Shown here: positions 30,840 through 35,157 of the stretch, one piece after another | Position numbering within the stretch: the first letter of the stretch is position 1 | Layout: each line of letters begins with the position of its first letter | Assembly (NCBI GenBank): GCA_949775045.1 | Contig: OX459104.1 | Location: 1,158,001-1,222,000 of the forward strand | Direction of reading: 5' to 3' | DNA from: Metridium senile | Taxonomy: Eukaryota > Cnidaria > Anthozoa > Actiniaria > Metridiidae | Length of the DNA stretch: 64,000 nucleotides | The notes under the pieces: generated by a model | Database searches by the model: none | Seen by the model: the letters and a program-made list of their open reading frames with translations, nothing else | Told to the model about the DNA's origin: nothing | Program-made: the position numbers and the translations under genes

Positions 30840-33800
30840 ATGGAAAGCCAACATTCATTTACGTTTGAGCCATTTCGAATCAAGTCAATCGAGACGTTCA
30901 AAACAACAACAAGAGAAGAAAGAATGAAACACCTAGAAGAAGCCTCGTACAATCCATTCATGGTCAAGTCAGAAAACGTCATGATAGACTTGCTGACAGA
31001 CTCGGGCACGGGCGCAATGAGCAGCGACCAATGGTCTGCGATCATGCGCGGAGATGAGTCGTACGCAGGCTCTAGCAGCTTTCACAAATTCGAAGAAGTC
31101 ATCAAAGAGATTTATGGGTACCGTCACGTGATCCCAACTCACCAAGGTCGGGCTGCTGAGCGGATTCTCTTTCATTGTACTTTGCAACCTGGCGATATTG
31201 TCCCTAACAACGCTCACTTCGATACGACAAAAGCCAATGTGGAAACCAAAGGTGCTTTTGCATTGAACCTCCCCTCCCCTATTGCTATGGATAAAGACAC
31301 AGACTACCCCTTCAAGGGAAATATGAATGTTGACAGGCTGGAGAATCTGTTGTCTGGAGATCAAGGAAGTAAAGTGAAGATGGTGTTGTTGACAATTACT
31401 AACAATGCACTAGGTAAGTAAGGATGGGGAAAGAGGAGAAAGAAGAGGGGGAGGGAGAGGAGGAGGGAGAGGAGGAGGGAGAGGAGGAGGGAGAGGAGGA
31501 GGAAGAGGAGGAGGGAGAGGTATCAAGGAAGTAAAGTGAAGATGGTGTTGTTGACAATTACTAACAATGCACTAGGTAAGTAAGGATGGGGAAAGAGGAG
31601 AAAGAAGAGGGGGAGGGAGAGGAGGGAGAGGAGGAGGGAGAGGTATCAAGGAAGTAAAGTGAAGATGGTGTTGTTGACAATTACTAACAATGCACTAGGT
31701 AAGTAAGGATGGGGAAAGAGGAGAAAGAAGAGGGGGAGGGAGAGGAAAGAGGGGAGGAGGGAGAGGAGGAGGGAGAGGAGGAGGGAGAGGAGGAGGGAGA
31801 GGAGGAGGGAGAGGAGGAGGGAGAGGAGGAGGGAGAGGAGGAGGGAGAGGTATCAAGGAAGTAAAGTGAAGATGGTTTTGTTGACAATTACTAACAATGC
31901 ATTAGGTAAGTAAGGAGAGGGGAATGGGGAAAGAGGAGGGGGAGGGAGGGAGAGGAGGAGGGAGAGCAAGAGGGAGAGGAGGAGTGAGAGGTATCAAGGA
32001 AGTAAAGTGAAGATGGTTTTGTTGACAATTGCTAACAATGCATTAGGTAAGTAAGGAGATGGGAATGGGGAAGAGGATACAGAAGAGGGGGGACAGAGGG
32101 AGAGGGGAATGGATAGGGAGGAATGGAGAGGAGGGAGAGGTATCAAGGAAGTAAATTTGAGTTGAAAATGGAGACGGAAAAGGGGAAAACAGGGGGGAAG
32201 TGTTCTGCCATTCCCCGCGTGCTTTATAACTGCACACAACACGCGCGTGTGCGTTTTCCATTTCTTTGACAAACAATTCAATGAGAGCATTAACGTGCTG
32301 GATGTATTAAATCTATTATATTCCGTCTATAAAGGTGGTTCAGCTGTAAGTATGGAAAATATCAAAGCAGTTTCAAATGTCTGTCGCCGACACAAGACCC
32401 CACTCTTCTTTGATGCATGTCGGTTTGCCGAGAACGCGTGGTTTATTAAGACTAAAGAGCCTGGATACGAGCATAAGACTCCAAAAGAAATTTCCCAGGA
32501 AATGTTCTCTTACGGTGATGGTTGTACGATGTCAGCTAAAAAGAATGGTTTAACCAACATTGGGGGATTTCTGTCTATGAACGATGATGACACGGCAGAG
32601 AAGTATGTCTTAGGCCATCATCACCATTCATCATCTTGCACTTCCTTCGCTTCTTCTTCCTCCTCTTGCTTTTCCTCCTCCTCTAACTTCTTTTCGTGGA
32701 GCTGGCAAAACGAGCGACGCAGAAGAGGGGCGACCTCACAGAGTTTGTCCAACTCAACCAAACTCAGCTCCAAGGGGGGCTCCGTCTCTCAAGAGGAAAT
32801 AAACTGAACTGTACTCCTCCTTCTCTTCTCCTTCCTACTCCTCTTCCTTCTTCCTCCTCCTTCTCATCTTCCTCCAACTTTGATTTCTTCTTCCTCCTCC
32901 TCCTCCTCCAACTTCTCTTCGTACTCCTCCTTCTCTTCTTCCTCATCTTCCTCCCACTTCTCTACTTCCTCCTCCTCCTTCTGTTTTTCCTCATCTTCTT
33001 CCAACTTCTCTACTTCCTCCTTCTCCTCCTTCGCTTTCTCCTTCTCCTCCTTCGCTTCCTCCGCCTCGGATTCTTCCTCCTCCTCCTCATCTTCCACTTC
33101 CTCTAACTTCAACTTCCTCCAACTTCTCTACTTCCTCCTCCTCCATCACCACCACCATCACCATCACCATCACCATCACCATCACCATCACCATCACCAT
33201 CACCATCACCATCACCATCACCATCACCATCACCATCACCATCACCATCACCATCACCATCACCATCACCATCACCATCACCATCACCATCACCATCACC
33301 ATCACCATCATTATCACCATTGTTCTAAATCATCAATCATCACCATCAGCATCATTACCAAGAGTCAAGACTGTAGTTAAGCATTTTCTCATATTTTCAA
33401 ACAACGCCGAAATTTCTACATAATCAAAAAATCAAAGTAAGGTTGAAAAGCTACATTTGCTCAATATTTTCGTATTTATTCTTTTAGATGTCGAACGGAG
33501 CTAGTCATCTCTGAGGGGTTCGTGACATATGGAGGTCTGGCTGGACGTGATTTAGAAGCAATGGCAGTTGGTTTCAAGGAAATCCTGCAAGAACCCTACC
33601 TGGAATACCAAATTGAGTTTGTAAAACACTTGGCAGCCATGTTGAAGAAAGCTGGTGTACCAGTCCTCACTCCTCCAGGAGGGCATGCGGTAAGTCTGTG
33701 TACTAGTTTGCTAATCAATTTAATACTAAACAATAGAATAATTAAATGTGGATGACTCTGTGGCGCAATGGTAGCGCGTCTGACTCCAGATCAGAAGGCT

Positions 33801-35157
33801 GCGTGTTCGAGTCACGTCGGGGTCAACTTGACTTCACTTTTTGTATAGTTACGTTTTTCAAGTCTAAAAAAGTAATGAGGCCTTGTAAGCGCACTTCTCA
33901 TTTTTTAAATTTTAATATTTACAAATATTCAACAGGGAAACTTTTAATGATGCAATTGACTGGTATGTTTATCATGCACGTTTCTAGTATTTCTAAAGCC
34001 TTCATCAGTTAATATAATACAGGGTCGGATACAGAAATTTATCAGCGGGTGTCCCAATAGCAAATTAAATAAAGGGCTTTTATGATGTTAGTGGGTGTCC
34101 GATCCCTAAATGTCTATAATAAAATCTGTGCTGTGTGCCGTTATAAAGCACTTATAATTATAAAGCGCTTCGCGTCGTGCTTCTCTTAACACTTCTCTCG
34201 TGTTCTGACAACCCAGCATGCTTTATAACTGCACACAGCACGCGCGCGCGTTTCTATTTCTTCAATATAAATGTTTTGCGCCATTTTTTTATTAAAAAAA
34301 TACTTATCTATTTCACAGGTTTATATCGACGCTGAAGCAATGCTTCCTAACATCCCAAGAGAGAGGTTCCCTGCATGGGCTCTTAACTGTGCCCTGTATT
34401 TAGAAGGGGGGATACGAGGTGGTGAATTAGGGGGCGTGATGTATGGTGGGGTACCAAAAGACAAGCGCATGCCTGATGGAGAAACCGCTGAGTGTAAAGT
34501 GGATGATGAGCCGGAACTTGTCCGGTTGGCGATACCACGAAGGGTGTATACAGAGTCGCATATGAGGTATGGAATAGATAGATACTGTATTTACTCGAAT
34601 AAGCGCCGCATTTCAACGCTATAATATTACTCTAGAACAGCATTGGAAATAAATTGTTATCAAAAGCTTTTCAAAGTAATTATATTTCACCGCTCGCAGA
34701 GAAGTATGTCGCACAAGTAAAATAACTGTGTCCCTAAAATGTTTCACCTTATCAGTTCCCATGATCCCAAAAAACTATTGTTTTATCATATTTTGCTCCC
34801 TTGTTCCCTGAAAAAAATTTGGCAGTATCTCTTGTTCCCTAAAAATAAATGCGCTTGTTCCCCCTAAAACCCCTGGGAGGGGTTGATTGATTGACTGATT
34901 AATTCACTTTTTGTAGATACGTTGCAGAAGTTCTCGGCAGCATCGCTAAAGACAGCTCTCACATCACAGGTTATGAGATTGTATGGGCCGCTAAAGCATT
35001 ACGTCATTTTACTGCCCGTATGGCACCAGTCTCCCCGGACAAAATTAAAATTCATCTCCAGAAAACGACAGTATGCAAAGAAGGTACTTACACAAATGGC
35101 ACAACAGAGGATACTAAACATGCCAAGAAAAGACTATTGATCTCAACATTAGATTAA
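30840..35157 (+). CDS. tnaA: Tryptophanase (tryptophan indole-lyase), complete, 5 exons
   Basis: Predicted PLP enzyme splitting L-tryptophan into indole, pyruvate and ammonia. Exons 30840-31413, 32335-32602, 33488-33689, 34319-34566 and 34917-35157 join in frame with GT/AG sites to give 510 residues. Family motifs: DLLTDSGTGAMS (50-61), GDESYAGSSSF (71-81), PTHQGRAAE (99-107), FFDACRFAENAWFI (216-229) with PLP-contacting D218 and R221, and MSAKK with the Schiff-base Lys260. Three residues separating tryptophanase from tyrosine phenol-lyase are of the tryptophanase kind: Asp128 in FDTT (E. coli Asp137), Leu385 where tryptophanase has Ile and phenol-lyase Arg, and His461 in RHFTA (E. coli His463). 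About 40 extra C-terminal residues follow His461 relative to the 471-residue E. coli enzyme. Spliceosomal introns rule out bacterial contamination. Activity in the animal is inferred. Confidence 0.93.
31414..32165 (+). repeat. Tandem copies of the tryptophanase exon 1 tail and its splice donor
   Basis: The last 53 or so bases of exon 1 plus its donor (TCAAGGAAGTAAAGTGAAGA, GACAATTACTAACAATGC, TAGGTAAGTAAGG) are repeated in the intron starting near 31523, 31646, 31853 and 31994, with a truncated copy at 32143. They are separated by GGAGGGAGAGGA-rich spacers. Four copies keep a GTAAGTAAGG donor (GT at 31576, 31699, 31906, 32047). Each is followed by an in-frame TAA, so they add no coding sequence. 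Confidence 0.9.
32620..33310 (+). repeat. Pyrimidine-rich (TCC/TTC)n tract followed by (CACCAT)n array
   Basis: Intron 2 of the tryptophanase gene holds a CTTCCTCC-rich tract (about 32640-33136), then about 28 tandem CACCAT hexamers (33138-33306). Long poly-Ser, poly-His and poly-Glu frames read here are repeat artefacts. Confidence 0.9.
33754..33825 (+). tRNA. tRNA-Trp (CCA anticodon)
   Basis: A 72-nt tRNA with acceptor GACTCTG/CGGGGTC (two G-U wobble pairs), A-box TGGCGCAATGG, anticodon loop CTCCAGA giving CCA, B-box GTTCGAGTC, and discriminator A. CCA is not encoded. A T-run about 10 bases downstream can act as a Pol III terminator. It lies on the sense strand in intron 3 of the tryptophanase gene. 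Confidence 0.95.
34128..34252. repeat. Inverted-repeat element in tryptophanase intron 3
   Basis: The left arm GTGCTGTGTGCCGTTATAAA with GCA is matched by the right arm TGCTTTATAACTGCACACAG with CAC. The internal CTTCTCTTAACACTTCTC segment recurs near 14726. A half copy of the right arm lies near 32218-32252 in intron 1. Confidence 0.65.

What the first reader, a model, noticed from the sequence alone, without database searches (positions are those of the whole stretch)
30840..35157. Intron-containing tryptophanase in an animal genome
Five exons with GT/AG junctions encode a complete 510-residue enzyme with Lys260 and all three residues that distinguish tryptophanase from tyrosine phenol-lyase. 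Tryptophanase is established as mainly bacterial, with a few protists. Introns and neighbouring animal genes make contamination unlikely and suggest gene transfer followed by intron gain. Host-made indole would matter for signalling with microbes or for chemical defence.
Basis: partly seen in the sequence, partly recalled or inferred. Interest (0 to 1): 0.88.

Follow-up and report, generated by a model that had tools for sequence, protein, structure and literature searches.

The report
Bacterial tryptophanase in anemones and corals
A chromosome of what is most likely a sea anemone carries an intact five-exon gene, related to bacterial genes and shared with stony corals, which was likely captured once from a bacterium and is predicted to make the animal's own cells turn the amino acid tryptophan into indole, a signal molecule usually made by microbes.

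Summary
Five exons at 30840-35157 with GT/AG junctions splice into a 510-residue protein on an 18.6 Mb contig, so contamination is effectively ruled out. NCBIfam's tryptophanase subfamily scores 633.5 bits (cut-off 285). At the five positions separating tryptophanase from tyrosine phenol-lyase it reads Asp, Phe, Gly, Leu, His; none is the phenol-lyase residue. The PLP lysine is Lys261, not Lys260. Relatives occur in seven named hexacorals, nearest Exaiptasia at 75%. The anthozoan rows form one clade (100/100) among bacteria. One intron seems shared with corals and the others lineage-specific, fitting one old transfer, then intron gain. New here: a coral paralogue clade lost the Asp kept in all 166 non-anthozoan rows examined (16 of 53 anthozoan-type rows; one change). 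The gene's presence in anthozoans was on record: five of the seven species bear a tryptophanase name, and a 2021 survey lists anemones and corals. Activity, direction and role are untested; a horizontally acquired protist homologue prefers converting indole to tryptophan.

The parts
30840..31413 (+). exon 1, codons 1-191 plus one base; start ATG
   Evidence: junction codon 191 phase 1
31414..32334 (+). intron 1 (921 nt, GT..AG); holds four further copies of the 3' end of exon 1 with its GTAAGT donor
32335..32602 (+). exon 2, carries the PLP lysine Lys261
32603..33487 (+). intron 2 (885 nt), with a CCATCA array at 33143-33320
33488..33689 (+). exon 3
33690..34318 (+). intron 3 (629 nt), contains a tRNA-Trp gene
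33753..33827 (+). tRNA-Trp (CCA) gene inside intron 3, one of at least 19 near-full-length copies in this genome
   Evidence: ARAGORN; Rfam 66.5 bits; genome copies
34319..34566 (+). exon 4, includes an acidic loop that is longer than in nearly all bacterial rows
34567..34916 (+). intron 4 (350 nt) after codon 430, phase 2; the position at which truncated Asp-less coral frames also break
34917..35157 (+). exon 5 with the substrate-site histidine His461, a C-terminal tail and the stop codon
10413..13074 (-). flanking gene: three RhoGEF-like exon frames
   Evidence: Pfam PF00621 E 9.8e-09 and 4.3e-12 over cut-off, third frame E 0.019 below cut-off and outscored by another family
17580..17822 (-). 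flanking frame with a RING-type zinc-finger match (weak, below the Pfam cut-offs)

Best explanation
This is a complete, intron-bearing nuclear gene for a tryptophanase-type PLP lyase that hexacoral animals likely acquired once from a bacterium, and its protein is predicted to cleave L-tryptophan into indole, pyruvate and ammonia in the animal's cytosol. Mechanism by homology (residue roles recalled, except the five substrate-site positions of PMC5805759): Lys261 would hold PLP as an aldimine; Arg417 would bind the substrate carboxylate; Asp218 and Arg221 would hold the cofactor; Tyr75 would protonate the leaving indole carbon; Asp128 and His461 would recognise the indole ring. Shown by sequence: the frame, the junctions, these residues, the clade, and that only two more residues precede the EPFRIK motif than in the bacterial protein P0026. 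Inferred: activity, direction and location. The family then seems to have gained introns lineage by lineage and, in stony corals, to have split into a copy that keeps the tryptophanase Asp and one that lost it.
For: Gene model and GT/AG junctions. Subfamily score 633.5 against a cut-off of 285. Active-site map against E. coli TnaA and Pantoea TPL with the five discriminating residues from PMC5805759. Anthozoan clade 100/100 among bacteria, joined to a 29-row, Chloroflexota-rich bacterial clade at 95/81. No other named eukaryote among the 120 listed of 8000 scored in either of two searches. 18.6 Mb contig. Break at codon 431 in 9 of 9 truncated Asp-less coral frames, and no break at the window's other three junctions in those 9 or in 28 truncated Asp-bearing rows. 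Predicted fold of the Exaiptasia orthologue (pLDDT 82.8) matches phenol-lyase and tryptophanase structures, query TM 0.80-0.85 for the top 26 chains. No second tryptophanase among the 6 PF01212 matches in this genome; the four on another contig include one exon that matches threonine aldolases.
Against: No transcript of the window's own copy was available. Val394 is replaced by Gly, as in Nematostella, effect unknown. By sequence and by fold the nearest solved structures are phenol-lyases by a small margin (438.1 against 433.9 bits). It does not reach the cut-offs of the equivalog models TIGR02617 or NF053783, although 2 of 2 bacterial relatives and 1 of 1 Cetobacterium tryptophanase tested do not either. 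Some deeper branches of the tree are weak (91/50, 85/92, 93/64), and the program warned of long branches, E. coli TnaA, the Pantoea phenol-lyase and the B. theta tryptophanase among them. A horizontally acquired tryptophanase in Blastocystis prefers the reverse reaction (PMC8448343).
Confidence: 0.73

Rival explanations
1. The enzyme works mainly in reverse, joining microbial indole to pyruvate and ammonia (or serine) to make tryptophan for an animal that cannot make it.
For: Blastocystis TnaA, also horizontally acquired, prefers converting indole to tryptophan (PMC8448343). No trpB candidate in this genome, so the animal seems to have no tryptophan synthase of its own.
Against: The substrate-site residues are largely those of forward tryptophanases. 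The Blastocystis authors knew of no other reverse-operating TnaA. The trpB search is exon by exon and could miss a split gene.
Confidence: 0.12
2. It is a tryptophanase-fold lyase whose physiological substrate is another beta-substituted amino acid, as suspected for the coral paralogue without Asp.
For: Gly383 at a substrate-site position. E. coli tryptophanase also cleaves serine and S-ethyl cysteine (PMC5805759). A sister coral clade lost Asp137 and shows Ala394 and Val396.
Against: The window copy keeps Asp128, Phe292 and His461, and position 394 varies among the non-anthozoan rows (144 Val, 11 Cys, 8 Ala, 3 others of 166).
Confidence: 0.11
3. It is a tyrosine phenol-lyase.
For: Slightly higher PDB match to phenol-lyases; a source names the Nematostella X2 isoform so, and one Chloroflexi relative too (P0168).
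Against: None of the five discriminating positions has the phenol-lyase residue: Asp, Phe, Gly, Leu, His against Thr, Met, Met, Arg, Phe; 497.4 bits against a TIGR02618 cut-off of 720.7.
Confidence: 0.03
4. Contamination, assembly artefact or dead gene.
For: No RNA evidence for this copy; repeat-rich introns.
Against: 18.6 Mb contig, four introns and an intact frame, relatives in seven named hexacoral species.
Confidence: 0.01

Closest known systems
Database proteins of Exaiptasia, Nematostella, Oculina, Porites, Acropora, Montipora and Desmophyllum (P0001, P0002, P0004, P0014, P0005, P0008, P0010, P0071)
   Same: Same clade; 61-75% identity; a long acidic loop in the seven of these eight rows that were measured
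   Different: Porites and Acropora rows have Ala for the tryptophanase Asp; coral frames show no break at the window's introns 1-3 (inferred)
Bacterial tryptophanases of Chloroflexota and neighbours (e.g. P0026, P0093)
   Same: About 57-60% identity; of 166 non-anthozoan rows 166 have Asp137, 160 Phe304 and 165 His463
   Different: Continuous frames; loop of 23 residues in 141 of 166 rows against 33 here; tail of 0-15 residues against 41
Escherichia coli TnaA (tryptophan indole-lyase, EC 4.1.99.1)
   Same: Catalytic residues aligned one to one
   Different: 41% identity; far branch; Val394 and Ile396 against Gly and Leu
Blastocystis tryptophanase BhTnaA
   Same: Horizontally acquired eukaryotic tryptophanase (PMC8448343)
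   Different: Protist; prefers converting indole to tryptophan; its sequence was not compared here
Tyrosine phenol-lyase (Pantoea, Citrobacter; EC 4.1.99.2)
   Same: Same fold, 44% identity to the Pantoea enzyme
   Different: All five substrate-site positions differ

Membership tests
Tryptophanase subfamily (NCBIfam NF009709 / PRK13238) | whole-protein score over the curated cut-off | tested here: met
   633.5 bits against 285. The model also accepts a phenol-lyase (657.6 bits), so it defines the joint family
Tryptophanase equivalogs TIGR02617 and NF053783 | score over the equivalog cut-off | tested here: not met
   467.9 against 825.8 and 530.5 against 750. Controls: 4 of 4 anthozoan rows, 2 of 2 bacterial relatives and 1 of 1 Cetobacterium tryptophanase also fail both; E. 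coli passes TIGR02617. Not filed under these equivalogs
Tryptophan indole-lyase (EC 4.1.99.1) | Asp137, Phe304, Val394, Ile396, His463 at the substrate site (PMC5805759) | tested here: inconclusive
   Asp, Phe, Gly, Leu, His: three identical, one conservative, one different; 394 and 396 also vary in the non-anthozoan rows, though none there has Gly
Tryptophan indole-lyase (EC 4.1.99.1) | PLP lysine and general catalytic residues | tested here: met
   Lys261, Tyr75, Asn189, Asp218, Arg221, Tyr295, Arg417; the residue roles are recalled knowledge
Tryptophan indole-lyase (EC 4.1.99.1) | release of indole from L-tryptophan | not testable with these tools
   needs a bench assay
Tyrosine phenol-lyase (TIGR02618) | score over cut-off; Thr124, Met288, Met379, Arg381, Phe448 | tested here: not met
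   497.4 against 720.7; 0 of 5 residues; the Pantoea control passes at 924.3
Bacteria-to-animal horizontal transfer | animal clade nested in bacteria, chromosomal, with introns | tested here: met
   protist, fungal and mollusc homologues were not in the tree
Bacteria-to-animal horizontal transfer | spliced transcripts in the host | not testable with these tools
   no RNA reads held. Relatives only: P0003, P0006, P0007, P0009 and P0011 are 483-522-residue frames on contigs of 1.8-2.7 kb, as spliced transcripts would be (inferred)

The most novel reading that the evidence does not exclude
Hexacorals run a captured bacterial lyase as a two-way indole-tryptophan exchange with their microbes: the Asp-bearing enzyme of the anemone lets the animal rebuild the essential amino acid tryptophan from microbial indole, or dose its microbes with host-made indole, while stony corals have evolved a second, Asp-less copy into a new host aromatic lyase with its own substrate.
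Probability: 0.15. Interest if true: 0.9.

Novelty: new member of a known kind. Interest (0 to 1): 0.6.

Why it matters
Indole is treated as a microbial signal, and indole found in a coral or anemone would normally be credited to its bacteria. A host enzyme in the clade that holds reef-building corals and the models Nematostella and Exaiptasia would upset that reading and can be tested directly in cultured animals. The family is also a clear record of gene transfer, intron gain, duplication and active-site change in animals.

Tried and rejected
Tyrosine phenol-lyase was rejected on five of five substrate-site positions. Contamination was rejected on contig length and introns. A second tryptophanase copy in this genome: the PF01212 search gave 6 matches, two over this gene and four on contig C5; of those four I translated two and compared one with solved structures, where it matches threonine aldolases. 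Tryptophan synthase: no trpB candidate. Special meaning of the tRNA-Trp gene in intron 3: rejected, because 19 of the 40 matches scored in this genome are near full length, 14 of them in one cluster on C10. Donor phylum: the neighbouring bacterial clade is Chloroflexota-rich but holds several other phyla, so I name no donor. KEGG annotation paper of Acropora digitifera (PMC3750612): four terms searched in the text, no hit. Pfam on flanking frames: 20 frames tested, two over a cut-off, both RhoGEF. Intron 1's extra donor copies: reading on from exon 1 into intron 1 meets a stop after two codons, so use of a later donor would truncate the protein. Tryptophan 2,3-dioxygenase in this genome was asked for and never answered.
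Full report
What is there. At 30840-35157 on the plus strand five exons join into a 510-codon frame with four GT/AG introns of 921, 885, 629 and 350 nt. Eleven other in-frame choices among nearby splice sites exist, but each deletes residues that Exaiptasia keeps. The coding sequence has 46% G+C against 37% for the window. A PF01212 search of the whole genome gave 6 matches: two over this gene and four on contig C5, of which two were translated and one was compared with solved structures, where it matches threonine aldolases. So no second tryptophanase was seen; the search scores only the best candidates, exon by exon.

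What it is. NCBIfam puts the protein in the tryptophanase subfamily at 633.5 bits (cut-off 285), and below the cut-offs of three narrower equivalog models: TnaA 467.9/825.8, NF053783 530.5/750, tyrosine phenol-lyase 497.4/720.7. Controls show the equivalogs to be narrow: four anthozoan rows, two bacterial relatives and a Cetobacterium tryptophanase fail all three as well, E. coli TnaA passes its own, and Pantoea phenol-lyase passes its own. PMC5805759 (abstract and passages read) gives five positions that separate the two activities: Asp137, Phe304, Val394, Ile396, His463 in tryptophanase against Thr, Met, Met, Arg, Phe. The window protein has Asp128, Phe292, Gly383, Leu385, His461. None is the phenol-lyase residue. 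The residue aligned with the PLP lysine is Lys261. A model of the Exaiptasia orthologue (44-row alignment, mean pLDDT 82.8) matches phenol-lyase and tryptophanase structures at query TM 0.80-0.85 for the top 26 chains, phenol-lyases first; fold alone does not tell them apart.

Where it comes from. In two protein searches (8000 candidates scored in each, 120 listed) the listed rows that name an animal are all hexacorals: Exaiptasia diaphana 75%, Nematostella vectensis 70%, Oculina patagonica, Porites lutea, Acropora palmata, Montipora foliosa and Desmophyllum pertusum. The other rows that name an organism are bacteria, mostly Chloroflexota, and one vent metagenome, at about 57-60%. In a 70-row tree rooted on E. 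coli TnaA the 13 anthozoan rows are one clade (100/100), the anemones one clade (100/91) with the window next to Exaiptasia (100/99), and the corals another (98/91). The whole lies inside bacteria, joined at 95/81 to a 29-row clade (itself 92/80) that is rich in Chloroflexota but holds other phyla, and far from E. coli TnaA, phenol-lyase and the haloarchaeal row. Some deeper branches are weak (91/50, 85/92, 93/64), and the program warned of long branches: L093, the B. theta tryptophanase 8sbg, the Pantoea phenol-lyase, L089 and E. coli. That the host is a sea anemone rests on this placement. Protist, fungal and mollusc homologues were not available for the tree, so a shared origin with some other eukaryote is not excluded, only unseen in the top lists.

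Introns. The window's junctions fall at codons 191 (phase 1), 280 (phase 2), 348 (phase 0) and 430 (phase 2). Many database rows look like single-frame calls on genomic contigs, so their ends should mark introns. All 9 truncated rows of the Asp-less coral-type clade end (6) or diverge (3) directly after TESH[ML]R, the window's fourth junction; all 28 truncated rows of the Asp-bearing coral-type clade align unbroken to codon 378-386 and stop there, where the window has no intron; none of the 37 breaks at codons 191, 280 or 348. Nematostella isoform X2 skips from codon 191 to about 253, which implies an intron at the window's first junction there too. The simplest reading is one old intron at codon 430 and later gains in anemones and in one coral clade; loss in corals is the alternative. 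This rests on protein frames, not on the corals' DNA.

A coral paralogue without the tryptophanase Asp. At E. coli position 137 all 166 non-anthozoan rows examined have Asp (the phenol-lyase row, set apart, has Thr; the 166 were chosen for likeness to this family). Of 53 anthozoan-type rows 37 have Asp, 15 Ala and 1 Pro; the 16 also share Ala394 and Val396. They form one clade (100/98) and need one change on a 51-row tree; the branch that joins the two coral clades there is weak (89/63). Named members are Porites and Acropora; Montipora, a relative of Acropora (recalled), sits in the Asp clade, so this looks like an old duplication. In E. coli, D137P with three other changes abolished tryptophan cleavage and gave phenol-lyase activity (PMC5805759). 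The coral rows have Val, not the Arg of that variant, at 396, so a shifted or lost substrate preference is an inference of unknown direction. The window gene belongs to the unchanged anemone branch. In the 13 anthozoan rows measured a loop between E. coli positions 396 and 419 is 28-56 residues long (window 33) against 23 in 141 of 166 non-anthozoan rows (longest 31), and the C-terminal tail is 13-70 (window 41) against 0-15.

How it would work. By homology (recalled mechanism of the family) the enzyme forms a PLP aldimine at Lys261, takes the substrate's alpha proton, protonates the indole ring carbon and expels indole, leaving aminoacrylate that hydrolyses to pyruvate and ammonia. The protein begins within two residues of where bacterial P0026 begins, so a cytosolic location is likely. 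Activity, direction and role were not tested. The closest functional warning is Blastocystis, whose horizontally acquired tryptophanase prefers converting indole to tryptophan (PMC8448343; abstract, section 21 and passages read). This genome shows no trpB candidate, so both directions remain of interest.

What was known. PMC8537960 (abstract, section 3.1, the first of three parts of section 3.3, and passages read; [quoted passage not shown] PMC5015328 (one table passage read) lists Nematostella v1g204932, Tryptophanase, in a table of regeneration responses with the label Oral at 24 h; that this is P0002 was not checked. PMC4962025 (passages) reports a tryptophanase transcript in a muricid mollusc. 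Searches for tryptophanase with cnidarian plus horizontal gene transfer (0 papers), Nematostella (2), sea anemone (4), coral plus indole (21, of which 20 were listed), cnidaria (4), for tyrosine phenol-lyase with coral (1), and a looser one (316, 15 listed) showed in their listings no study of the anthozoan enzyme's activity, introns or Asp-less paralogue; I did not open all listed papers, and most subscription papers are not held.

Verdict. A real, chromosomal, animal gene with a tryptophanase-type active site and bacterial ancestry.

Noticed in passing
31403, 31565, 31688, 31895, 32036 (+): Exon 1's last bases and its GTAAGT donor occur five times in tandem, four of them inside intron 1, at 0 expected by chance. 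A later donor would meet a stop at once.
   Followed up: partly
33753-33827 and 41028-41101 (+): Two tRNA-Trp genes, one inside an intron of the tryptophanase gene. The genome search scored 40 of 50 candidates: 19 near full length at 92-100% identity, 14 of these in a cluster on C10 near 15.63 Mb.
   Followed up: yes
G000 contigs C1, C2, C3, C4, C8, C14, C15: The other 21 tRNA-Trp matches are partial (about 60 bases); 20 of them form ten opposite-strand pairs 1.4-3.0 kb apart, which suggests a mobile element with tRNA-derived inverted ends.
   Followed up: no
48089-58531 (-): A 3,480-codon uninterrupted frame of Ser/Thr-rich units (84-bp tandem repeat over most of 49020-58366), perhaps a mucin-like exon of unusual length.
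   Followed up: no
32221-32247 and 34220-34246 (+): A 27-base motif, allowing one A/G position, is shared by introns 1 and 3 of the gene, 0 expected by chance.
   Followed up: no
17913-21112: A 51-bp repeat with 63 copies next to a RING-type exon frame.
   Followed up: no
P0154: A 593-residue protein whose precomputed Pfam domains join a GNAT acetyltransferase to a tryptophanase-type domain.
   Followed up: no
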